A program made the position numbers and the translations under genes. From assembly GCA_020341755.1 (NCBI GenBank), contig CP070834.1:1366257-1399277 (forward strand): a DNA stretch of 33,021 nucleotides, read 5' to 3'. This document shows positions 19,710 to 33,021 of this stretch, piece by piece; positions within the stretch are counted from its first letter, which is position 1; the number at the start of each line of letters is the position of its first letter. The stretch comes from Caldifarciminota bacterium. GTDB taxonomy: Bacteria; Hydrothermota; Tepidihabitantia; SM23-42. The notes under the pieces are model-generated. The model did not search any database and was not told the DNA's origin. It saw nothing but the letters and a program-made list of their open reading frames with translations.

Positions 19710-21956
19710 GTGAAACGAACGTTGTTGGTCATCACTTTATTGACAGCAATAGCTTTTTCCCAGACCATGATTGTGCGCGTGTATGTGCCGACCCGGCAGG
19801 ATCTCAAGGTGCTCACTATGAGGTCCCTGGATATTGCCGCCGGACGGTACGGTGAGTGGTTTGATTTGGTTGTCGATCAGGAAGGCCTGAGCACGGTCAT
19901 GGCATCGGGACTGCCGTATGAAGTCACGGTTCCCAGTATCGATCTTGCACGCGATGAGGTGCGTGGTGAATATTGTTCATATGCGGACATGGTGGACTCA
20001 TTGATAACCCTGTCCTTGAACTACCCGGATCTCTGTCAACTCGATTCATTGCCATTTCCCACCTATGAAGGCAGGTGGATATACGGCGTTAAGATCTCTG
20101 ATAATGTTTGGCTCGAAGAGTATGATGAGCCGAAGTTCACGCTCGATGGCTGTCATCATTCCCGTGAATGGGCTACGCCGCAGGCAGTATTGTTCTTCGC
20201 CGATTCCATGCTGACTTCCTACGGCATCGTCAGCGAATTGACCGAGATCATCAATACCACTGAACTATACTGTTTTCCGGTTATCAATGTCGACGGCTAT
20301 GTCCATGACTACGGCGCCGGCGGTGACATGTGGCGCAAGAACCGTGAACCGTTCGGAGGCTATATCGGGACGGATTGTAACCGGAATTACGGCGGTGCCT
20401 GTAATGGTGAGGTCGATGGTTACTGGGGCGCTGCGGATGAGGACCAGTTGTCGCACCGTCCGAGCCGCGAGACATTTTGCGGGCAGTATGCGTTCTCGGG
20501 TGATGAGATATGGTCATATACGACATTCATTCGGGAGCGCAGGATAAGCACGGGTTTTTCCCTGCACAGTTACGGTGAACAGGTAATGTACCCGTGGGGG
20601 TACAAGGCTGCCGGCACACCTGATGCTGCGCTGTACGATGCTAAGGGTGCCCACATGGCGGGAATGATGCAGGGGGTATACGGCGGTACGTACACGCCGG
20701 GACAGTCGTATTACAATCCCTATCCGACATGCGGCAATACCCGGGACTGGGTGTACGGGTACAACAAATGGGTGGCAGGTGTTTCGTCCCTGTTCTACGG
20801 TGCCGAGATCGGCACCTGGTTCTATGAAGATGTCGGCAATCTCGATTTCATCTCACGGCAGGTGTTCAAGGCGGCGTCATATCTTGCCGGTTTCAGCGAC
20901 AGCCTGGTACTCGTTGCCGATGGATTTGTCGCGCCGCCGGTCATATACTCCCTTGGTACCGTGGACGAAGATTTTACGATTTTTTGGCATGCCAAAAACA
21001 GTTTTGACAATAACCCCGAGCAGTGGGAACTGGTAGAACTTTCAGGTCTCACCGTAGTCCTTGATGACCTGGAAACCGGTACAGAACGCTGGATACTCGA
21101 GGGATTCACCCATACGACCGCGCAGTCGCACAGTGCGACGCACAGTTTCTTCTCGGGCGACTCTCCCGACATGAACCACGCCGTACGTACGGCATTTCCC
21201 TATGTTGTGCAGCCCGGCGACAGCCTGACCTTCTGGTGCCGATATGACCTGGAGACCAATTATGATGTGGCGGTGGTTGAGATATCGGAGAACACCAAGG
21301 AATGGTTCTGTCTTGCTGACCGTTTCAACGGGTCGAGTGCATGGACGCGCAAGGCGTATTCGCTCGAGGACTGGGTCGCTACATCAGTGTATTTCAGGTT
21401 CCGGGCAATGACCGACGGTCTCTATAATAATGGAGGGTTCTATGTCGATGATATTTCACCGGTGTGCGTATATGAAACAGTCGATACCATAACATCGACC
21501 CATCCCGATACGTCATACACCTTTGTCAACCATGAACCGGGCATATTCTACTATTATATAAAGGGTTATAATGCTGCCCACGGCTGGGGTGATTATTCGT
21601 GTCTAGAGCAGGCTGACGTGACGGTCGGTGTTGCTGAAATCCCTGACCATGAGTCATTCACTGACCGACTTACCTTTCAGGTACGACCGAACCCGTTCCA
21701 GAGTAAGGCACTGCTGTGTGTCGGCGGTTTGAACAGCGATGATCGCATGCACGCACGGTTTTCCGTTTATAGCAGTACCGGACAGATGATCAAAACCATC
21801 GCCCAAACTGTGCAGGGTGGTCGTCTGGTCTGTGAATGGGATGCTACCGATCAATTGGGTCGAACTGTTCCAGCGGGTGTGTACTTTGTCCGGTTACGAA
21901 TCGACGGAAAGAGCACTGCCTATGATGCAGTGGAGCGCATCGTACTGGTGCGTTGA
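19710..21956 (+). CDS. Secreted M14 zinc carboxypeptidase with C-terminal FlgD-like tail
   Basis: A protein of 748 residues from a GTG at 19710, with AAGGAGG upstream. Signal peptide 1-18 (ending AFSQ); short prosequence (about 19-80); M14 catalytic domain (about 85-385) with zinc ligands His150 and Glu153 in HHSREW and His286 in LHSYGE, a conserved CNRNY (223-227), and probable catalytic Glu366 in GAEIG. Residues about 440-610 form a jellyroll of the kind in immune inhibitor A-type peptidases (VYFRFRAMTDG ... GFYVDDIS). The last 90 residues carry the FlgD-Ig/Por-tail pattern: RPNPF, FSVYSSTGQMI, VPAGVYFVRLR, ending IVLVR. It should cleave C-terminal residues from extracellular peptides. It opens a run of five secreted peptidase genes. 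Confidence 0.92.
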   Translation: MKRTLLVITLLTAIAFSQTMIVRVYVPTRQDLKVLTMRSLDIAAGRYGEWFDLVVDQEGLSTVMASGLPYEVTVPSIDLARDEVRGEYCSYADMVDSLITLSLNYPDLCQLDSLPFPTYEGRWIYGVKISDNVWLEEYDEPKFTLDGCHHSREWATPQAVLFFADSMLTSYGIVSELTEIINTTELYCFPVINVDGYVHDYGAGGDMWRKNREPFGGYIGTDCNRNYGGACNGEVDGYWGAADEDQLSHRPSRETFCGQYAFSGDEIWSYTTFIRERRISTGFSLHSYGEQVMYPWGYKAAGTPDAALYDAKGAHMAGMMQGVYGGTYTPGQSYYNPYPTCGNTRDWVYGYNKWVAGVSSLFYGAEIGTWFYEDVGNLDFISRQVFKAASYLAGFSDSLVLVADGFVAPPVIYSLGTVDEDFTIFWHAKNSFDNNPEQWELVELSGLTVVLDDLETGTERWILEGFTHTTAQSHSATHSFFSGDSPDMNHAVRTAFPYVVQPGDSLTFWCRYDLETNYDVAVVEISENTKEWFCLADRFNGSSAWTRKAYSLEDWVATSVYFRFRAMTDGLYNNGGFYVDDISPVCVYETVDTITSTHPDTSYTFVNHEPGIFYYYIKGYNAAHGWGDYSCLEQADVTVGVAEIPDHESFTDRLTFQVRPNPFQSKALLCVGGLNSDDRMHARFSVYSSTGQMIKTIAQTVQGGRLVCEWDATDQLGRTVPAGVYFVRLRIDGKSTAYDAVERIVLVR

Positions 21957-22024
21957 AGAACATGAAATGCACAATTTGTAAATATACCTTTATTTTCATT
22001 TTCAATTGGCCATAAGGAGGCATA

Positions 22025-25000
22025 ATGAGAAAGATCTTTTTTCTCGTGATACTTTTCTCTCTTCCTGTTTTTGCTCTGATGAGCCCTGACCTTATACAGG
22101 TTATGTCATCCCGGGATGCAGACGATCTTATCCCTGTGGATATTGTGTTCAAGGCTCAGATGGATATACGTGAGCTTGAGAGTGCGGTCGCGGGTCTGTC
22201 CCGGTCTGAACGACGGGTTCTCGTCGCACAGCTCCTCACTGAGTTCTCGCGGGAACATCAATTCGAGGTGCTCGCGTATCTCCGTGAAATGGAGCAGCAG
22301 GGAAAGGTTCAAGAAATACGAACGTTCTGGATCAATAACGCGATATACTGTGAAGCAACACCAGAAGTGATACTGGCACTCGATATACATGATGATATAT
22401 ATTACGTTGACTACGACCTGAAGCACATGAAACTCGAAGAACCCCTGTATCAGGCAGCTCCACCTGACCGGACACGGGAGATTGCCTGGGGAGTACTTAA
22501 GGTCCGTGCCGATCAGGTGTGGTCGCTTGGGTATACTGGTGACGGCATCGTGGTCGGCGTCATCGACACGGGCGTCAATTATAATCACGTCGATCTTGCC
22601 AGCCATATGTGGACCGATCCGAACTACCCGAATCACGGGTGGAATTTCGAATATAATAATGATGATCCCATTGACCAACAGGGACATGGAACTCATTGCG
22701 CAGGCTCGGTCGCATCAGACGGAACTGCCGGTTCACAGTGCGGGGTTGCCCCCGAGGCGCAGATCATGGCATTGCGCGTACGCACCCAGGTTGATACTGT
22801 TGCCGAAAACCAGATATGGGCGGCAATGGAATTCGTCGTTTCACCACCCCTGTCACCGGCAAATGGCGGAGACCTGATTTCGATGTCTCTGGGATTCCGC
22901 TATATCTGGAACCCGCGTCGTTCTACCTGGCGCACGAACTGCGACAATATTGGTGCTGCCGGTGTGGTCATGATCGTGGCCGCGGGTAACGAGCGGCAGT
23001 ACAGTACACCCCCGGAGGAAGTGCGCTGTCCTGGTGATGTTCCATCGCCCTGGCCTAATCCTGAGAACGGTTCGACCGGTGCGCAGTCAGCCGTGGTGAC
23101 CATTGGTGCAACCGATATCAATGATTATATCGCTAATTTTTCCAGTGCCGGTCCCGTGACCTGGCAGAGCATAGATCCGTTCTACGACTATGCCTATCCG
23201 CCGGGTCTGGTCAAACCCGATGTTTCGGCACCCGGTGTCAATATTAAATCCTGTTCGTACACCAGTAATACCGGTTATCTTGACGGCTGGGACGGGACAT
23301 CCATGGCGACGCCGCATGTTGCCGGAGCGGTTGCCCTGATGCTGGAAAAAAATTATCTGCTCACGACCCGCCAGATCGATAGCATTTTGCAGACCACCGC
23401 GGTCGATCTCGGTACGACCGGCAAGGATAATGATTTCGGTGCCGGTAGGATAGATGCCCTCAATGCCGTCAATGCGACGCCGGGCATGGGCGTATATTTA
23501 ATGCTCGCTGATTACTGGCTGGTCGATACTGCACCCGGCGGCAATGGCAACGGCTGGTGGGAAAGCGGCGAAGAAATTGATCTTGTGGTCGAGATATACA
23601 ATGCCGGTCTTGATACTGCCCAGGATGCATATGCAGTGCTCGGCACGACCGATCCCTACGCCACGGTCATCAGTGACAGCGTTTATATTGGTCAGATGCT
23701 GCCGTATGACACGATCGAGGTATCATATCGCGTTGGCGCATCCGTGTCTGCGCCGGCTGTGCATTCTGTTGATTTCGACCTTGCCTTAGATGCTACAGGC
23801 GGCTCATGGGATTACGGGTTCAGTATGTATATCAACCCGCTTCCCCTGCTCACCTATCAGTACCTGGAGATCAGTGGCGGTAATGGCGACGGTATTCTGG
23901 ACCCTGGTGAGACCGTGGACATGGTGATTACGGTCAAGAACGAAGGCGTCCGTGATGCAGAGGACGTCACGTCGACCCTGCTGTGCGGTTCATCGTATAT
24001 CACCGTCGATGATGACTCGGGATATATAGGCTTCATTGCGATAGATGATACGGCAAGTAATGCCGGTGACCCCTTTACCGTGACTGCAGACAGCGCGACA
24101 CCGACCGGTACCGAGGTTGCGTTCGAGGTCGAGGTGGTGTCGGGAACATATATTGATACGCTCGATTTCTCGCTGGTCGTGGGCAAGAAGCATTACTTCC
24201 TGTGGAATCCGGACGAGACCCCGACGCCCGGGCAGAACATGCATCAGATCCTGGGTAATCTTGGGTATGAGGGGGATTACAGTGCGACGAGTCTCGCCAG
24301 TGATCTTTCCATGTACCAGGCGGTGCTCGTATGTGTCGGCATATACAGCAACAATTACGTCATCGACGCGGCCAGCCCGGAGGCGGCCGCCCTCGTCGAT
24401 TTCCTGCAGAATCAGAACGGCAGGATGTATTTAGAAGGCGGTGATGTCTGGTACTATGATCCATCATGGGGTGGGTATGACTTCTGTCCTCTGTTCGGTA
24501 TCAATGCAGTGGCTGATGGTAGTGATGATCTCGGTCCGGTGATCGGCGAGTCGAATGCCTTTACCACGGGTATGAATTTCAACTATGGCGGTGAGAACAA
24601 CTGGATAGACCATATCGATCCCCAGGGATCCGGGTTCCTCATTTTCCATGACGGCGACGACAGTTACAATTGCGGAGTGGCGAACGATGCCGGTACGTAC
24701 CGGACAGTAGGTACATCGTTCGAGCTCGGACTCCTGACCGATGGCAGCGGTGTTTCCACCCGTGAAGCACTCATCGATTCGGTCATGAAATTCTTCGGTA
24801 TCGTACTGAACCCGGGTGTAGAGGAGTATCCGGGAACGACTACGCTGCCCCTGGTTACGCAGATGAATGCCGTGTATCCTAATCCCATGGTTCGCACGGT
24901 TCACATTTCGTACCAGCTGGCACGCCAAACATCGGTTTCTCTGACAGTGTACGATGCAGCAGGTCGCCTCGTGCAGAGGCTGGAACATAGTGTGCAGGAC

Positions 25001-25129
25001 CCGGGTCTCTACACGACATCATGGGATGCAAGGGACATGCGCGATCGCAGTGTGCCTGCGGGTATTTACTTCATCAGTTTCCGCGCCGATGAGAACAAGA
25101 AGGTTGAAAAAGTCGTGCTGATGCGTTAA
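22025..25129 (+). CDS. Secreted subtilisin-like S8 protease with shared C-terminal cassette
   Basis: A protein of 1034 residues; AAGGAGG precedes the ATG. Signal peptide about 1-17, I9-type propeptide (about 30-130), and S8 domain (about 150-490) with the triad Asp181 (VIDTGVN), His221 (GHGTHCAG) and Ser426 (GTSMATPHVAG), plus the oxyanion-type Asn in VAAGNE. Two Ig-like/CARDB-style repeats follow (about 493-608 and 610-720), each opening with a GNGxG...GE(E/T)xD segment. A Rossmann-like module follows (about 721-926: YFLWNPDETPTPGQNM, AVLVCVGIY, RMYLEGGDVWYYDP, DLGP, WIDHI), then an FlgD-like tail (YPNP ... VPAGIYFISF ... VVLMR). From about residue 609 to the stop it matches the C25 protease downstream. 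A broad-specificity exported protease is the likely role. Confidence 0.93.
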   Translation: MRKIFFLVILFSLPVFALMSPDLIQVMSSRDADDLIPVDIVFKAQMDIRELESAVAGLSRSERRVLVAQLLTEFSREHQFEVLAYLREMEQQGKVQEIRTFWINNAIYCEATPEVILALDIHDDIYYVDYDLKHMKLEEPLYQAAPPDRTREIAWGVLKVRADQVWSLGYTGDGIVVGVIDTGVNYNHVDLASHMWTDPNYPNHGWNFEYNNDDPIDQQGHGTHCAGSVASDGTAGSQCGVAPEAQIMALRVRTQVDTVAENQIWAAMEFVVSPPLSPANGGDLISMSLGFRYIWNPRRSTWRTNCDNIGAAGVVMIVAAGNERQYSTPPEEVRCPGDVPSPWPNPENGSTGAQSAVVTIGATDINDYIANFSSAGPVTWQSIDPFYDYAYPPGLVKPDVSAPGVNIKSCSYTSNTGYLDGWDGTSMATPHVAGAVALMLEKNYLLTTRQIDSILQTTAVDLGTTGKDNDFGAGRIDALNAVNATPGMGVYLMLADYWLVDTAPGGNGNGWWESGEEIDLVVEIYNAGLDTAQDAYAVLGTTDPYATVISDSVYIGQMLPYDTIEVSYRVGASVSAPAVHSVDFDLALDATGGSWDYGFSMYINPLPLLTYQYLEISGGNGDGILDPGETVDMVITVKNEGVRDAEDVTSTLLCGSSYITVDDDSGYIGFIAIDDTASNAGDPFTVTADSATPTGTEVAFEVEVVSGTYIDTLDFSLVVGKKHYFLWNPDETPTPGQNMHQILGNLGYEGDYSATSLASDLSMYQAVLVCVGIYSNNYVIDAASPEAAALVDFLQNQNGRMYLEGGDVWYYDPSWGGYDFCPLFGINAVADGSDDLGPVIGESNAFTTGMNFNYGGENNWIDHIDPQGSGFLIFHDGDDSYNCGVANDAGTYRTVGTSFELGLLTDGSGVSTREALIDSVMKFFGIVLNPGVEEYPGTTTLPLVTQMNAVYPNPMVRTVHISYQLARQTSVSLTVYDAAGRLVQRLEHSVQDPGLYTTSWDARDMRDRSVPAGIYFISFRADENKKVEKVVLMR

Positions 25130-25212
25130 ACTATATGAAACGTGGATTTCAGAAAGAGGTTTTATAAAAAACTTTGGGTTTGTGACAGATATGTGATTAA
25201 AGGAGGTTTGGT

Positions 25213-28200
25213 ATGCAAAGGTTAACCCTTGTGTTGACGTTGCTGCTGGCGGTCGGCTTTGCTGCGACCGAAGTGGTGACGTTTGAGGACAACTGGGCAC
25301 CGAATCCACTGTTCAACATGGTTTCCGAGACCTCAATAGGGTGCGAGCTGGTATTCAGCATGCACCAGATGGTCATCGAGGATCAGGAACTGGACGGCGT
25401 GATGATGAACGCCTATGGTGTACCGGCAGTGTTTTTACCGAGACCGGGTGCACCGAATATAAACGGTGCGTCGCGGTATATAGCAGTACCGCAGGGTGCC
25501 CGGGTACAGGTGACGGTCCTGGACCAGAGGACCGAGGTTATACACGGTGTCGAGGTGCCGCCGGCACCAGCGTATCCCCTGGAACACGATGAGCCACCAC
25601 TTCTCTATGAAAAGGATACGAAGATCTACAATGTGGATGCCTTTTTCCCGGCTACACCTGTGATCATCTCGGATAGACGGACCGTGCGTGGTGTGGACAT
25701 GGTCCTTGTGACCGTGATGCCGTTCCAGTATAATCCGGTCACCAAAGAATTGCTCGTACACAAGGATATCAGGTTCCGGATCGATTTTGTGGGCGGGAAC
25801 GGCCGGTTCGGCGAGGACCGTCTGCGCAGTCGTTTCTGGGAGCCGATCTTCCGTAATAATCTGATCAATTACAGTTCATTGCCGGTCATCGACTTCTATG
25901 CTCCCGAGCGTCTGGAGCGCGACGGGTATGAATATGTCATCATCGTACCCGATGACGCGGTGTTCGAGGCATGGGCGGATACGATCAAGACATGGCGTAA
26001 ACTCCAGGGCATATCCTGCGAGATCTATACTCTGACCGAGGTCGGTGGTTCGAGTGCGACTGCGATCGAGAACTTTCTGAACAACGCGTACTCGACCTGG
26101 AGTACGCCGCCGGCAGCATTCTTGCTGCTGTCAGATTATCCATCCTCTGGCGAACTGTACGGGATCACCTCGCCGATGTGGGACAATTACTGTGTTTCTG
26201 ACAACATCTATGCCGACTATGACGATGATGATCTTCCAGACATGCATCACGGCAGAATATGTGCTCAGAACGAAGATCAGTTATCGCGCATCATAAACAA
26301 GTTCCTGGGTTATGAGCGTGAGCCCTACACGCACGCGCCGTTTTATGATAATCCATTGGTGGCGTGCGGATGGCAGGATGATCGATGGTTCCAGCTTGCC
26401 TCTGAGGTCGTACGCGGTTTCTTGATCAACGATCTCGGTAAAACTCCCGCGCGTGAGTACAATGTCGGTTCGGGTAATCCGTATGTCGGCGGCCCGTGGT
26501 CGACCCGTACCGGTACGACGCCGGTCGTGGCATACTGGAACGCATACGGGTACGTGCCGCTTACCAATCCCTATAATTATCAATGGTGGGATGAGGGGTC
26601 GGCAGGGGGTATCAATGACGCGATCAACAGCGGCGCATTCTTCATTCAGCACCGGGATCACGGCGCGACCTATGGATGGAGTGAGCCCAATTACGGCCTG
26701 GCTGACCTGAACGGTCTTGATAACGCATATTTTACCTTTGTCAATTCGACGAACTGTTTGACCGGAGCGTATGATTATTATACCGAGGTATTCGCCGAGA
26801 AGTTCTACCGGATAGAATACGGTGCCTGGGGTGCGAATGCGGCAAGCGAGGTGAGTTATTCCTTTGTGAATGATACTTATATTTGGGGCATGTGGGATTG
26901 CCTGTATCCGGAGTTCGATCCGGGGTATCCAATGGCTGATCTGACCGGGCAGGATGATCTGCGTCCCTGCATGGCAATGACCAGCGGCAAGATTTACCTG
27001 CATGCGATGTGGTTCCCTGACAGTGTCCCCGGCGTCAGCGGGTACCGCGTGTACACGGATCATCTGTTCCATCATCATGGTGACTGTTTTACCACCCTGT
27101 ATTCAGAAATGCCACAGACCCTGAGCGTGAGCCATCCCGCGACCCTGTTGGCCGGTATGACCTCGTTCACCGTGACCGCGAATGACGGTTCGGTGATCGC
27201 CCTGACCGTTGGTGGTGAGATCATCGGGGTTGCCGAGGGTACGGGCAGTCCGGTCGTCATCACGATCTCCCCTCAGGTACCGGGTACGGACATGAAGGTG
27301 ACCGTTACCAAGGCAAATTATTATCGCTATGATGTAGATGTGCCCGTGGTCTCGGGATCGTATGCGTACGTGACCATGATTGCCGGTATTATCGACGATG
27401 CGACCGGTAATGGCGACGGTTTGATCAATCCCGGAGAGAATATCGATTTCGGCGTCTGGGCGAAGAATGTCGGTGTCGGTACTGCCGATAATATATACGG
27501 CATGCTTTCGGAGTCAGACGAGTACGTGAGCATCGCCGTGGACTCGAGCTGGTACGGCGACATCGCCCAGGACGACTCGACCTTGTCTGATCCGTACTAT
27601 GATTTCACCGTGGATGCTGATTGTCCGGATGGTCATATGATCGACTTCACGCTCGAGTTTTATGATAGCAACGACAGCATCTTCATATCATATCCTTCAT
27701 ACATGGTCTATGCTCCGGTACTGACCTATGAAGGTATCGTGGTCGAAGGCGGCAACGGCGACGGCATTCTCGATCCGGGTGAGACCTGTGATCTGGTAGC
27801 CACCCTCATGAACGAGGGCGGTGGCAGTGCGACCAATGTCACCTCGACCCTGCTGTGTTCATCACCGTACATCACGATCAATGATGACTCGGGTACATTC
27901 GGTACGATCCTGCCGGACAGCAGCGCGACGAATGCCGCTGATCCCTATAGCGTAACAGCAGACAGTACGACACCGATGGGGACCAACATTGATTTTGAAA
28001 TCGAGGTCATTGCGGATAATTACGCCGATACGTTCGGTGTTTCACTGGTCGTGGGTAAGAAGCATTACTACCTGTGGAACCCGGATCCGACCCCCACGCC
28101 TGGTCAGAACATGCATGAGATCCTGGGTAATCTGGGATACAGCGGTGATTACAGCACATCGAGCCTTGCCAGCGATCTTTCCATGTACCAGTCGGTCATC

Positions 28201-29001
28201 GTCTGCGTCGGGATATACAGCAACAACTATGAAATCAGCGCGGGCAGTCCTCAGGCAAGCGATCTGGTCGATTATCTGCAGGACCAGAACGGCCGCATGT
28301 ACTTAGAGGGCGGTGATGTCTGGTACTATGACCCGATGTGGGGCGGCTATGACTTTTGTTCCTTGTTCGGTATCAATGCAGTAGCTGATGGTAGTGATGA
28401 TCTCGGTCCAGTGGTCGGTGAAACAAATGCCTTTACGACCGGCATGAATTTCAATTACGGCGGTGAGAATAACTGGATCGATCATATAAACCCGAGCGGC
28501 TCAGGATTCCTCATTTTCCATGACGGGAATGATAGTTACAATTGCGGGGTAGCGAACGATGCCGGTTCATACCGGACCGTAGGTACCTCCTTCGAACTCG
28601 GATTGTTGACCGACGGCAGCGGTGTCTCGACACGAGCAGCACTCATCGACTCGATCATGAAATTCTTCGGTATCGTGCTGAATCCCGGTGTCGAAGAAAA
28701 TCCGGGCAGCGCCGGTCTGCCGATGGTGACCAGAATGAATGCTCTGTATCCGAATCCACTCGTCCGTCACGCGGCGATCCGTTACCAGCTGGCATCCACC
28801 GAGCACCTCCGCGTTCAGGTATACGACGCGGCTGGTCGTGTCGTTACAACCCTGGTCGATGAAGTCCGTGAGCCCGGGTATTACATGACTCAGTGGCATG
28901 GCACAGACAGTCAGGGGCGAGCAGTTGCTGCTGGTGTTTACTTTGTGCGTTTTGTTACCGAGTCCCACCATCAGGTGGAAAAGGCAATTCTGTTGCGGTA
29001 A
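25213..29001 (+). CDS. Secreted gingipain-like C25 cysteine peptidase with shared cassette
   Basis: A protein of 1262 residues; AAAGGAGG precedes the ATG. Signal peptide about 1-18. The pro-region (about 19-230) contains the C25 pro-domain wording (ATPVIIS, VTVMPFQYNP, RFRIDF). The catalytic domain (about 235-620) opens with YEYVIIVPDD and has the dyad His483 (HRDHG) and Cys515 (NSTNC). A C25-type Ig-like domain (about 625-720) is followed by two GNGDG-type Ig repeats (about 728-836 and 840-948), the Rossmann-like module (about 949-1153) and an FlgD-like tail (YPNP ... VAAGVYFVRF ... AILLR). The Arg/Lys specificity of true gingipains cannot be judged. PorU, the type IX sortase, is also C25, but this protein has its own tail and looks like a client rather than a sortase. 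Confidence 0.92.
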   Translation: MQRLTLVLTLLLAVGFAATEVVTFEDNWAPNPLFNMVSETSIGCELVFSMHQMVIEDQELDGVMMNAYGVPAVFLPRPGAPNINGASRYIAVPQGARVQVTVLDQRTEVIHGVEVPPAPAYPLEHDEPPLLYEKDTKIYNVDAFFPATPVIISDRRTVRGVDMVLVTVMPFQYNPVTKELLVHKDIRFRIDFVGGNGRFGEDRLRSRFWEPIFRNNLINYSSLPVIDFYAPERLERDGYEYVIIVPDDAVFEAWADTIKTWRKLQGISCEIYTLTEVGGSSATAIENFLNNAYSTWSTPPAAFLLLSDYPSSGELYGITSPMWDNYCVSDNIYADYDDDDLPDMHHGRICAQNEDQLSRIINKFLGYEREPYTHAPFYDNPLVACGWQDDRWFQLASEVVRGFLINDLGKTPAREYNVGSGNPYVGGPWSTRTGTTPVVAYWNAYGYVPLTNPYNYQWWDEGSAGGINDAINSGAFFIQHRDHGATYGWSEPNYGLADLNGLDNAYFTFVNSTNCLTGAYDYYTEVFAEKFYRIEYGAWGANAASEVSYSFVNDTYIWGMWDCLYPEFDPGYPMADLTGQDDLRPCMAMTSGKIYLHAMWFPDSVPGVSGYRVYTDHLFHHHGDCFTTLYSEMPQTLSVSHPATLLAGMTSFTVTANDGSVIALTVGGEIIGVAEGTGSPVVITISPQVPGTDMKVTVTKANYYRYDVDVPVVSGSYAYVTMIAGIIDDATGNGDGLINPGENIDFGVWAKNVGVGTADNIYGMLSESDEYVSIAVDSSWYGDIAQDDSTLSDPYYDFTVDADCPDGHMIDFTLEFYDSNDSIFISYPSYMVYAPVLTYEGIVVEGGNGDGILDPGETCDLVATLMNEGGGSATNVTSTLLCSSPYITINDDSGTFGTILPDSSATNAADPYSVTADSTTPMGTNIDFEIEVIADNYADTFGVSLVVGKKHYYLWNPDPTPTPGQNMHEILGNLGYSGDYSTSSLASDLSMYQSVIVCVGIYSNNYEISAGSPQASDLVDYLQDQNGRMYLEGGDVWYYDPMWGGYDFCSLFGINAVADGSDDLGPVVGETNAFTTGMNFNYGGENNWIDHINPSGSGFLIFHDGNDSYNCGVANDAGSYRTVGTSFELGLLTDGSGVSTRAALIDSIMKFFGIVLNPGVEENPGSAGLPMVTRMNALYPNPLVRHAAIRYQLASTEHLRVQVYDAAGRVVTTLVDEVREPGYYMTQWHGTDSQGRAVAAGVYFVRFVTESHHQVEKAILLR

Positions 29002-29010
29002 GTAATACTA

Positions 29011-29039
29011 CAGGGAGGGCTCGTCCCGAGCCCTCCCTG
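29011..29039. other. Perfect 13-bp hairpin between the C25 and M14 genes
   Basis: The arms CAGGGAGGGCTCG (29011-29023) and CGAGCCCTCCCTG (29027-29039) pair perfectly around the loop TCC. It begins 9 bases after the C25 stop and ends 15 bases before the next ATG. No T-run follows, so an ordinary intrinsic terminator is doubtful. It could be an RNA-stabilising or processing hairpin, or partial terminator, between operon genes. Confidence 0.6.
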
Positions 29040-29054
29040 AGCATCCAGTAATAC

Positions 29055-31109
29055 ATGAATATAATGAAGATATATCTAATAATTATCCTCTGTACCTTTG
29101 CGGGCATCACACAGTCGCTCGAAGCGGTTAGTCTTACCCGTATCTCCCTTGCCAGGGAAGATATTGCGGCATTAGCACGTAGCGGTATCACGGTCATGGA
29201 CGCCGGCGATGGCTGGGTGCACGCTCTCATGTCCGATGAGGAAATTCGATCCCTCCAATCTGAAGGATTTGCGCTGGATATTCTAATTGCTGATTACCAG
29301 GCATATAAGGATGCTATCTTCACTCGTGGTTTTTACCATACCTATGAGGAATTGTATGCGGAGCTGGACTCATGTGCCAGTCAGTACCCGACGCTCTGCC
29401 GACTCGATACGATCGGTTACAGTATACAGAACCGTGCAATATGGGCAATGAGGGTGACCGATTATCCGGACAGCGAAGAGTATGAACCAGAGATACGTCT
29501 GGCCGGTAATATGCACGGAGATGAGCATATCGGTACTGAGATCACTCTGTATTTTTTGAAATATATTTTGCAGAACTACACCTCAAATACGATCGTTCAG
29601 GATATTATCGACAACCATGAACTGTGGATACTGCCGACCCTGAATCCGGACGGTAAGGTCGCCAATACCAGGCGGAACGCTAACAGCGTTGACCTTAACC
29701 GCGACTATGGATATTTCTGGGACGGCTGGGGCGGTAGTCCAGCGCCAGTATCCCAGATCGAAAACAAGGTCATTGTAGAGCATCTCCTCCAGAACAATAT
29801 CAGTCTCGAGTATAATTATCACTCAGCGGCTCAGTATGTCAATTATCCCTGGGACTATCATGATGCTGATCCTCCGGACAGCCAGCACATTATTATGCTC
29901 TCGGATATATACGAAGATTCCACCGGACTGGTGGCGATCAACGGGTATGACTGGTATCAGACGACCGGTGGCCTGCAGGATCATACTATCGGAACGAGTG
30001 GTGCGCTAGCATGGACCATCGAGACAATGGAACCGCCGAGTTCTGGGCAGATCGATGAAATTTGTTATGAAAACCGTGATGCGCTGCTTGAGGTATGCCG
30101 GCGCGCGGGTTGGGGCATGCAGGGTATGGTCAAGGATTCGGTTACGGGCGAACCACTCTATGCCCGAATCGAATGCATCCAGCCGGAACGGATCGATGTT
30201 TACAGCGATCCCGGACTCGGTGATTTTCATAAATTGATCGAACCAGGCATGTATGATGTAAGGATATCGACGAACGGGTACGCACCCGCATCGATATTCG
30301 ATGTTAGCGTTCCTGCGACCGGCAGTGTCGATGTCGGTGACGTGCTCCTGACAGAGGATACCACGTATCAGTATGCGTTCATGGTTGTCCTATGTCGCTA
30401 TGCCAATCATGCCGAACAGGATAATACGACACAGCCCCGCTACGCACTCGGTGCCCAGGACGATGTTTTCTTCTCGCTCGGGCAGAGCGGGTATATGGTG
30501 CTCGATATGGGACACGATACACCGATCCACGATGTCGGGGGTGATGATTTTACGGTCTTCGAGGGCGATGACGGTCTTGATGAAGGATATACGGTATCCG
30601 TGAGTAACACATGGGATGCAAACTGGTTGTCGTGCGGCAGTGCGACGGGCACGGCATCATTTGATCTGGCAACAACCGGTCTTACCACTGCACGCTATGT
30701 CCGGATAACCGATGACGGCACTTCGTCTTCCGGACCATATGCGGGATTTGACCTCGATGCGATCAGCGGATATTATGTGAGTCCGGGGATTGTCGACGAG
30801 AATGTCGGTACCGAGATGCCATCAGCGAAGATCCTCTCTATACAGCCGAGTCTTTTTAATATCAAAACCACAATACATTATGAATTAACATCACAGGCCA
30901 ATGTTGAACTCACTATTTTTGACGTGAGCGGCAGGCTGGTAACCGTGCTGGCACGTGGCATACGTGAACCAGGCATACATACTGCGGTGTGGCTCGCTCA
31001 CGATGGGCAGGGTCGACAGATTGCCCCGGGTGTCTACTTCGTACGGTTCTCAACCCGTGGCAAGGATATGCACCACGAAAGTCTGGAAAAAGTAGTAGTG
31101 ATGCGATAG
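29055..31109 (+). CDS. Secreted M14 carboxypeptidase with regulatory and discoidin-like domains
   Basis: A protein of 684 residues. Signal peptide about 1-24 (an ATG at 29064 is an alternative start; neither has a ribosome site). Prosequence (about 25-90) similar to those of the other M14 and M28 proteins. M14 domain (about 92-355) with zinc ligands His154 and Glu157 (MHGDE) and His256 (YHSA), conserved NPDG and DLNRDY, and probable catalytic Glu323 (WTIET). A carboxypeptidase regulatory-type beta domain (about 357-435: MQGMVKDSVTGEPLYARI) and a discoidin/carbohydrate-type domain (about 460-575: GDDFTVFEG, ARYVRITDDG, DLDAI) follow. The tail (about 593-684) retains FDVSGRLV, APGVYFVRF and VVVMR, but the usual PNP is replaced (QPSLFN). 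It differs clearly from the M14 protein at 19710, so the two are not a recent duplicate. Confidence 0.9.
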   Translation: MNIMKIYLIIILCTFAGITQSLEAVSLTRISLAREDIAALARSGITVMDAGDGWVHALMSDEEIRSLQSEGFALDILIADYQAYKDAIFTRGFYHTYEELYAELDSCASQYPTLCRLDTIGYSIQNRAIWAMRVTDYPDSEEYEPEIRLAGNMHGDEHIGTEITLYFLKYILQNYTSNTIVQDIIDNHELWILPTLNPDGKVANTRRNANSVDLNRDYGYFWDGWGGSPAPVSQIENKVIVEHLLQNNISLEYNYHSAAQYVNYPWDYHDADPPDSQHIIMLSDIYEDSTGLVAINGYDWYQTTGGLQDHTIGTSGALAWTIETMEPPSSGQIDEICYENRDALLEVCRRAGWGMQGMVKDSVTGEPLYARIECIQPERIDVYSDPGLGDFHKLIEPGMYDVRISTNGYAPASIFDVSVPATGSVDVGDVLLTEDTTYQYAFMVVLCRYANHAEQDNTTQPRYALGAQDDVFFSLGQSGYMVLDMGHDTPIHDVGGDDFTVFEGDDGLDEGYTVSVSNTWDANWLSCGSATGTASFDLATTGLTTARYVRITDDGTSSSGPYAGFDLDAISGYYVSPGIVDENVGTEMPSAKILSIQPSLFNIKTTIHYELTSQANVELTIFDVSGRLVTVLARGIREPGIHTAVWLAHDGQGRQIAPGVYFVRFSTRGKDMHHESLEKVVVMR

Positions 31110-31120
31110 GAACGTGGATT

Positions 31121-33021
31121 ATGAAAAAATTATGTGCAGTTTTATTAATGGTAAGTGCCCTGAGTTTTTCTACGCAGCTCGTACGGGTAGAACTGGGTAC
31201 TGATCGGCTGATGCCCTTGTTCGACCGCGGACTCAGTATCCTTGCGGAGTTCGAGACATGGGCACTGTTGTATGTGGCCGATCATGATATGTTTAAACTG
31301 GAGAGCCATCGCTATACGGTTCTGGAAACGGACCCGGTGGAAGGTGTTCACTATCTGGTGAAGGTTCTCGATCCAGAGATCGACATGGGAGTATACGGCA
31401 CCATCCTGACATCGAGTGACAATGACGTTCTCGTCAGGATTCATGAGGGCATGCTGGAACCGCTTATCAGGAACAGGGTCCAGGTGAAGAGAGTTTTCTT
31501 CACTCCGCTACACAGGGGCGGCGGGTGGTCGGGTCGGTTCACCTATGACCCGCTCGTGCAAAACATCGTCGACATGGTAGATCCGGACAGCGTACTCGCA
31601 TGTGTGCAGAGACTTCAGGATTTTAGGTCACGTTATTCCACGTACGACTCTTGTTTTGCAGCAGCCACGTACATTGCGAACAAGTTCAGCGAATATGGTT
31701 GTGACTCGGTATATTTCCAGTATCATACCGGCGGTCATGCACCCAATGTGATCGCGGTGAAACGGGGAATAGTCCAACCGGACAGTATCTATGCGGTGGT
31801 CTGCGGTCATTTCGATGCGACATCGAGCATGGCACCGACCGTTGCACCTGGTGCCGATGATAATGCCAGCGGTACCGCGAGCACGATCGAAGCAGCCCGG
31901 GTCATGAAGGATTTTCTCTTCGAACATTCCATACGGTATATGGCATTTTCCGGTGAAGAATTCGGTCTGTACGGCAGTGAGTATTATGCCGCGCAGGCGT
32001 ATGCACAGGGCGATAGCATCCTGGGTGTTTTGAACGCCGACATGATCGCTTACGCCAATACCCTTCCCGAAAGTCTTGAGGTCATCGGTAAGATATCGAA
32101 TCCGCCGTGCGAAACGTTCGCTGATTTCTTTATCGCCTGTGCCGATTCGTATACAACGCTCCTAACTGATAAACATATGACGAGCAGCTGGATCCCGTCT
32201 GACAACCAGAGTTTCCTCGATTATGGATATGTGGCACTATGCAATATCGAGGACTACGGCTTGACGAACCCACATTATCATCAGCCGAGTGATACGATCG
32301 GAGCGGGTTACAATAACAATGATTTCTGCACCGAGGTCATCAAGGCCCAGGTCGCCGCACTCGCGGTCATGGCTGTGCCGAGCACGAGTGTATACCTTCA
32401 GCTTGTGGATTTCTGGATAGTCGATACGGCATACGGTGGCAATGGTAACGGCTGGTGGGAAAGCGGTGAAGAGGTCGACCTCGTTGTCCGGCTCTATAAC
32501 GCAGGGATCGACACCTCCTTCAATACCTATGCTGTGCTGAATACATCAGATCCCTACGCGACGATCATCGAAGACAGCGTGCATGTTGGAATACTGCTGC
32601 CGCGTGATACGACCGAGGTGTCTTTCAGAGTCGGTGCAGCGGTATCAGCACCTTCTGGACATCTCGTCGATTTCAACCTCATTGCGGGTACCACCGGCGA
32701 TTCGTGGGATTACGGGTTCAGTATGTACATCAACCCGCTACCGCTCATCACCTTTCAATTTCTCGAGATCATCGGTGGGAATGGCAACGGCATTCTGGAT
32801 CCGGGCGAGACCGCTGACGTTGCGGTCACGGTCAAGAACGAAGGTCATCGCGATGCACTGGACGTTACCTTGACCCTGCAGTCGGGCTCATCGTATTTAT
32901 CGGTCGATGACGGCTCAGGGTACATTGATTTCATCGCCATCGATGATACCGCGAGTAATGCCGGTGATCCTTTTACGGTGACGGCCGATAGTGGGGCGTC
33001 TTACGGCACCGATGTCTGGTG
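31121..33021 (+). CDS. Secreted M28 aminopeptidase with shared repeats (3' end outside the window)
   Basis: Open from the ATG at 31121, 11 bases after the previous stop, to the window end (633 codons). Signal peptide 1-17 (ending SFST); prosequence about 18-85. The M28 domain (about 145-415) has all five zinc-ligand positions and the catalytic Glu: His230 (GHFD), Asp246 (GADDNASG), Glu279 catalytic and Glu280 (SGEEFG), Asp307 (NADM) and His387 (HYHQPSDT). From about 423 two GNGNG-type Ig-like repeats follow; they match the S8 protein at constant offset, including GGNGNGWWESGEE and YGFSMYINPLPL. The gene should continue into the same cassette and tail as the S8 and C25 proteins. It should remove N-terminal residues from extracellular peptides, complementing the two M14 carboxypeptidases. 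Confidence 0.9.
   Translation, partial: MKKLCAVLLMVSALSFSTQLVRVELGTDRLMPLFDRGLSILAEFETWALLYVADHDMFKLESHRYTVLETDPVEGVHYLVKVLDPEIDMGVYGTILTSSDNDVLVRIHEGMLEPLIRNRVQVKRVFFTPLHRGGGWSGRFTYDPLVQNIVDMVDPDSVLACVQRLQDFRSRYSTYDSCFAAATYIANKFSEYGCDSVYFQYHTGGHAPNVIAVKRGIVQPDSIYAVVCGHFDATSSMAPTVAPGADDNASGTASTIEAARVMKDFLFEHSIRYMAFSGEEFGLYGSEYYAAQAYAQGDSILGVLNADMIAYANTLPESLEVIGKISNPPCETFADFFIACADSYTTLLTDKHMTSSWIPSDNQSFLDYGYVALCNIEDYGLTNPHYHQPSDTIGAGYNNNDFCTEVIKAQVAALAVMAVPSTSVYLQLVDFWIVDTAYGGNGNGWWESGEEVDLVVRLYNAGIDTSFNTYAVLNTSDPYATIIEDSVHVGILLPRDTTEVSFRVGAAVSAPSGHLVDFNLIAGTTGDSWDYGFSMYINPLPLITFQFLEIIGGNGNGILDPGETADVAVTVKNEGHRDALDVTLTLQSGSSYLSVDDGSGYIDFIAIDDTASNAGDPFTVTADSGASYGTDVW

What the first reader, a model, noticed from the sequence alone, without database searches (positions are those of the whole stretch)
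23848..29001. 427-residue C-terminal cassette shared by unrelated proteases S8 and C25
From about 23848 to the S8 stop at 25129, landmarks throughout reappear in the C25 gene at a constant offset of 3872 bases (ending at its stop, 29001), so there is no net indel over about 1280 bases. Protein segments around RMYLEGGDVWYYDP and SFELGLLTDGSGVST are nearly identical, while DNA differs mainly at third positions. The catalytic halves are unrelated. This indicates recent duplication or ongoing gene conversion of a whole C-terminal delivery or anchoring unit between neighbouring genes of different peptidase clans.
Basis: seen in the sequence. Interest (0 to 1): 0.7.

Follow-up and report, generated by a model that had tools for sequence, protein, structure and literature searches.

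The report
Swappable protease tail module, not recent
Two neighbouring, unrelated secreted proteases in a WOR-3 bacterium do share a C-terminal piece, but it is an old module that has been moved among many kinds of secreted enzymes across the lineage, rather than a recent copy or ongoing gene conversion between neighbours.

Summary
The last 427 codons of the S8 gene (22025-25129) and C25 gene (25213-29001) align without indels at offset 3872, at 71% DNA identity. The reading needs correcting. (1) It is not recent: synonymous divergence in the best part is about 1.07, and no conversion tract shows. (2) It is not one unit. Only a 226-aa core module (24152-24829 / 28024-28701; 86% aa) is specially similar. 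The T9SS-type tail is no closer between the pair than to other tails, one of about 100 in the genome. The repeat before the core (23840-24151) is closer to that of a third neighbour, an M28 peptidase at 31121-33021. The S8 C-terminus is therefore a mosaic. (3) Neighbourhood is not the key. The core occurs 8 times in this genome and in 32 of 61 genomes searched. It sits on S8, several C25 types, M14, a phosphatase, a kelch protein, and as stand-alone proteins. Orthologous S8s carry a different module; C25s swap among three. No Pfam or PDB family matches the core. Best reading: exchangeable surface modules with T9SS tails, as in gingipain/HagA modularity. Side find: a homologous secreted family with a conserved in-frame TGA, probably selenocysteine.

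The parts
22025..25129 (+). S8 (subtilase) secreted protease gene, 1034 aa
   Evidence: Pfam PF00082 E=2.7e-53 aa 172-474; ORF
23495..23839 (+). S8 repeat 1 (aa 491-605), CARDB/DUF11-like; closest to the neighbouring M28 gene
   Evidence: 70% aa identity to M28 aa 425-539
23840..24151 (+). S8 repeat 2 (aa 606-709), first part of the reported cassette; closest to the M28 gene, not C25
   Evidence: 75% aa to M28 vs 60% to C25; tree S8+M28 100/98; AU rejects S8+C25 p=0.0037
24152..24829 (+). Core module of S8 (aa 710-935), undescribed 226-aa domain
   Evidence: 86% aa to C25 copy; 8 copies in genome; no Pfam match
24857..25129 (+). T9SS type A sorting / FlgD-Ig tail of S8
   Evidence: TIGR04183 37.1 bits; 48% aa to the C25 tail, same as to other tails
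25213..29001 (+). C25 (gingipain-family) secreted protease gene, 1262 aa
   Evidence: PF01364 E=8.9e-39, Propeptide_C25 E=1.6e-17, C25_C Ig E=1.5e-8
27358..27717 (+). C25 repeat 1 (aa 716-835)
   Evidence: phmmer segment map
27718..28023 (+). C25 repeat 2 (aa 836-937)
28024..28701 (+). Core module of C25 (aa 938-1163)
   Evidence: (87% over 224 aa)
28729..29001 (+). T9SS type A sorting / FlgD-Ig tail of C25
   Evidence: TIGR04183 28.6 bits
31121..33021 (+). M28 peptidase gene, cut by a 100-N scaffold gap just beyond the window end; carries the repeat pair shared with S8
   Evidence: PF04389 E=3e-28; gap and alignment
32393..33016 (+). Repeat pair of M28 (aa 425-632), sister to S8 repeats 1-2
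   Evidence: 73% aa identity over 208 aa; ungapped 221-aa block
19710..21956 (+). Neighbouring M14 carboxypeptidase with its own FlgD/T9SS-like tail, no core module
   Evidence: PF00246 E=4.1e-49
29055..31109 (+). Neighbouring M14 carboxypeptidase with tail, no core module
   Evidence: PF00246 E=8.1e-45; TIGR04183 26.2 bits

Best explanation
The shared C-terminus is a product of old, repeated domain shuffling among secreted enzymes of the WOR-3 lineage. Each protein is built as signal peptide, enzyme, one or two Ig/CARDB-like repeats, one exchangeable module in a fixed slot (the 226-aa core, or alternatives I call X and Y), then a generic type IX secretion sorting tail. Shown: the tail type, the SprA translocon gene, the slot, the three alternative modules on both S8 and C25, and the conflicting segment trees. 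Inferred: the tail directs export and surface attachment; the core is an alpha/beta, non-proteolytic recognition or docking module that works on the cell surface independently of which enzyme carries it. The window's S8 gained the core within its own lineage, since its orthologues carry Y, from the same within-genus pool as the C25 copy. Purifying selection has kept the core similar while flanks and synonymous sites diverged.
For: Copies: 8 in own genome, 32 of 61 genomes searched. Carriers: S8, C25, M14, metallophosphatase, kelch, enzyme-free proteins. S8 orthologues at 75-77% catalytic identity carry Y instead. The C25 catalytic tree has core, X, Y or none in 10 changes over 21 tips. Grouping the core of the window C25 with the cores of its C25 orthologues is rejected (p-AU 3e-24). 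The own-genome core clade 100/98 spans S8, C25, another C25 and a gap-truncated fragment. Repeat 2 of S8 is sister to M28. Core dN 0.085, dS 1.07. T9SS: 100 tails over cut-off and SprA 372.5 bits.
Against: The function of the core is not shown. The structure prediction failed (pLDDT 31) and there is no Pfam or PDB relative. The S8-C25 core pair is slightly closer than other own-genome pairs, also in codon choice (0.61 same codon vs 0.50-0.56), so an old conversion or a direct neighbour-to-neighbour copy is not excluded. No same-genus genome was available to date the S8 gain.
Confidence: 0.82

Rival explanations
1. One reading: recent duplication or ongoing gene conversion of the whole C-terminal unit between adjacent S8 and C25 genes.
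For: Ungapped colinearity over 427 codons at one offset and highest core identity of all own-genome pairs; S8+C25 core sister at 91/84.
Against: dS about 1.07 in the core, 1.29 in repeat 2, near saturation in the tail; no identity tract (P=0.45); repeat 2 groups with M28; tail not specially close.
Confidence: 0.06
2. Old gene conversion or a direct neighbour-to-neighbour copy of the core alone from C25 to S8 (or the reverse), early in this genus, with no later exchange. This is compatible with the best explanation as its last step.
For: S8-C25 are the closest own-genome core pair in aa, dN and same-codon fraction; S8 orthologues lack the core.
Against: The S8+L010 pairing is not firmly rejected (p-AU 0.056); distant loci are nearly as close; boundaries cannot be placed sharply.
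Confidence: 0.35
3. Simple vertical inheritance: S8 and C25 both had the module anciently and similarity is only constraint.
For: The core is under strong purifying selection (dN/dS about 0.08) and widespread in the family.
Against: None of the S8 orthologues found with 75-77% catalytic identity carries the core; five carry Y. The four own-genome copies form one clade across unrelated enzymes (100/98). The C25-vertical tree is rejected.
Confidence: 0.03

Closest known systems
Porphyromonas gingivalis gingipains RgpA/Kgp and HagA with shared cleaved-adhesin and DUF2436 modules (PMC5266723)
   Same: C25 peptidases and enzyme-free proteins share exchangeable C-terminal modules before a T9SS C-terminal domain; combinatorial module order. 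Module Y weakly matches Pfam Cleaved_Adhesin (E=4.3e-5).
   Different: Here the core is an unrelated module. Swaps cross peptidase clans (S8, C25, M14) and non-peptidases. Copies are old and divergent rather than near-identical repeats.
T9SS type A sorting domain (TIGR04183 / PF18962)
   Same: The last 75-85 aa of both proteins match, over the curated TIGR04183 cut-off; about 100 such tails in the genome and a SprA gene.
   Different: Explains delivery only; it is not the part that is specially shared.
CARDB / DUF11 Ig-like repeats
   Same: Repeats before the core match weakly and have the GNGDGxLDPGE signature.
   Different: Most matches are below the curated cut-off; the repeats have their own history (S8 with M28).

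Membership tests
T9SS type A cargo | C-terminal domain over the TIGR04183 curated score | tested here: met
   37.1 and 28.6 bits vs cut-off 23
T9SS type A cargo | Genome encodes the SprA/Sov translocon | tested here: met
   1820-aa frame, 372.5 bits vs cut-off 200
T9SS type A cargo | Tail is cleaved and protein exported or anchored | not testable with these tools
   needs proteomics
Gingipain-like C25 peptidase | Peptidase_C25 catalytic domain, C25 propeptide and C25_C Ig | tested here: met
Gingipain/HagA adhesin module (CAD, DUF2436) | Core matches Cleaved_Adhesin or DUF2436 | tested here: not met
   no such match to the core in 46 members at E<=10
Class I amidotransferase-like / ThuA domain (considered from the beta-alpha-beta pattern) | Detectable profile match | tested here: not met
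   no ThuA match to the core or its TGA-type relatives; ThuA hits in only 1 of 61 genomes, not in the own genome
Flavodoxin/Rossmann-like alpha/beta fold | Confident predicted fold | tested here: inconclusive
   AF2 pLDDT 31; only one TGA-type relative has a weak Flavodoxin_5 match, E=0.013
Gene conversion tract | Identity run longer than expected | tested here: not met
   26 nt, P=0.45

The most novel reading that the evidence does not exclude
The core belongs to an undescribed domain superfamily of WOR-3 surface proteins. One branch is a previously undescribed, T9SS-exported selenoprotein family with a Cys-Sec motif (G[WF][FY]RC-U-GD), and the other branch lacks that motif and became a swappable module on unrelated hydrolases. 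That would link a redox module to extracellular protein breakdown.
Probability: 0.5. Interest if true: 0.75.

Novelty: new variant of a known kind. Interest (0 to 1): 0.45.

Why it matters
It shows, with segment-by-segment trees, that secreted proteases of an uncultured phylum are assembled from exchangeable parts across peptidase clans. It defines at least one abundant domain family absent from Pfam. It also warns that ungapped colinearity with third-position differences can be very old. The homologous in-frame-TGA family would add an extracellular selenoprotein family.

Tried and rejected
AlphaFold2 on the six permitted core sequences failed (pLDDT 30.7, pTM 0.21), so no fold search was run. 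PDB profile search of the core gave only chance-level hits (best E=0.12; single-sequence). ThuA was tested as the nearest familiar fold without support. A viral-contig scan found no relative. Recent conversion was tested by identity runs, windowed codon identity and dS, and rejected. Misassembly between copies was rejected because core copies differ at about half of the synonymous sites or more. Papers on WOR-3 peptidases, T9SS or selenoproteins: none found in the library with those terms.

Full report
Observation. The S8 ORF (22025-25129) and C25 ORF (25213-29001) share their last 427 codons without an indel at offset 3872. DNA identity over 23848-25129 is 0.713, against 0.26-0.29 at other in-frame offsets. 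The profile is uneven: about 0.52-0.75 before 24200, 0.75-0.88 from 24200 to 24799, 0.45-0.70 after 24800. Pfam assigns the N-terminal halves to unrelated families and both C-termini to a FlgD-Ig/Por secretion tail. Homology runs back to S8 aa 499 with two small indels, so 23848 is not a boundary.

Age. Divergence by segment (Nei-Gojobori, own script): repeat 2, dS 1.29 and dN 0.34; core, dS 1.07 and dN 0.085; tail, dS 2.8 (close to saturation) and dN 0.49. Among codons for the same residue in the core, 61% are the same codon, against 40% expected from independent draws and 50-56% for other own-genome pairs. The longest identical run is 26 nt, what codon shuffling gives (mean 25.3, P=0.45). 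Recent duplication and ongoing conversion are therefore rejected. The sharp identity peak is explained by strong constraint on the core.

Not one unit. The tail is 48% identical between the pair, and S8 is 48-51% identical to several tails elsewhere; 100 proteins in this genome have such a tail over the cut-off. Repeats 1-2 of S8 match a third neighbour, an M28 peptidase (31121-33021), in an ungapped 221-aa block at about 73%. In the repeat-2 tree S8+M28 is 100/98 and S8+C25 is rejected (p-AU 0.0037). M28 is cut by a 100-N scaffold gap immediately after the window, so whether it carries the core is unknown.

Distribution of the core. There are eight copies in the 2.38-Mb genome, the other seven at 41-87% identity to the S8 copy, and matches in 32 of 61 genomes searched. 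Named records identify the lineage as candidate division WOR-3, with one TA06 record. Carriers include several C25 types, S8 (only the window's gene among those found), M14 (three), a purple-acid-phosphatase-like protein, a kelch protein, and many proteins with no recognised enzyme domain. Enzyme-free carriers argue that the module does not need a protease partner (inference).

Swapping. S8 proteins with 75-77% identical catalytic domains in five genomes carry module Y, and one further S8 carries X. C25 proteins carry core, X, Y or none of these, with 10 changes over 21 tips of the catalytic tree. The same X and Y modules sit on both clans. Cores of window-type C25s do not form a clade (p-AU 3e-24). 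The four closest own-genome cores form one clade (100/98) across S8, the window C25, another C25 and a gap-truncated fragment. So lineage-specific spread of the core among enzymes is the supported history. Within it, S8+C25 as sister copies is likely but not firm (91/84; S8+L010 p-AU 0.056).

Mechanism. Delivery: tail plus SprA make type IX export the likely route; cleavage and anchoring are inferred from the known system. The core: no Pfam or PDB relative, and AlphaFold2 failed with the few sequences allowed. Conservation in the core (YLEGGDVW; invariant W18, Y93, E95, W100, D153, E191, D197) and its residence on chemically unrelated enzymes suggest a recognition or docking module. That is inference, with moderate confidence. 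The nearest precedent is adhesin-module shuffling in gingipains and HagA (PMC5266723).

Side result. A homologous family (profile-profile probability 99.6, E=4.9e-25) in 17 genomes has exactly one in-frame TGA in each of 19 copies. In all 15 copies read in detail it falls at the same place, mostly in the motif G[WF][FY]RC-U-GD. Hairpins 16-19 nt after the TGA occur in all five of the first copies, with compensatory changes. Over 15 copies the mean z against synonymous recoding is -1.6, which is supportive but not strong. tRNA-Sec is found in 14 of 17 of these genomes and SelA in 14 of 17; neither is found in G000 or G027. No Cys version was seen, and no Pfam or NCBIfam family covers the module. 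A 2026 review of prokaryotic selenoproteins (PMC13188914) had no mention of type IX secretion when searched. A new selenoprotein family is likely but unproven.

Noticed in passing
L080-L084, L173-L189; own genome G000:C1:528957-529958 (L183): Secreted relatives of the core (signal peptide, core-like domain, usually a T9SS-like tail) each have one in-frame TGA at a conserved place, mostly G[WF][FY]RC-U-GD, with a hairpin just after it. Candidate new selenoprotein family; tRNA-Sec in 14 of 17 carrier genomes, no Sec genes detected in two (G000, G027).
   Followed up: partly
window 31121-33021: M28 peptidase whose repeat pair is the closest relative of the S8 repeats; the gene is cut by a 100-N scaffold gap right after the window.
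   Followed up: yes
L009:6975-8504 (G000 near 1537000): A core-bearing gene fragment truncated at its 5' end by another scaffold gap, so its enzyme part is unknown.
   Followed up: partly
L158:2797-3516, L147:10447-11751 and other loci: Two further exchangeable modules in the same slot: X (about 240 aa, no Pfam match) and Y (about 435 aa, weak Cleaved_Adhesin match), each on both S8 and C25 peptidases.
   Followed up: partly
window 19710-33021: Run of five adjacent secreted peptidase genes of four kinds (M14, S8, C25, M14, M28) on one strand.
   Followed up: partly
L048:3106-6672 (G020) and L055:698-4555 (G021): Very similar cores (sister at 100/100) on C25 proteins of different catalytic subtypes in two species of one genus: the same kind of exchange seen elsewhere.
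   Followed up: partly
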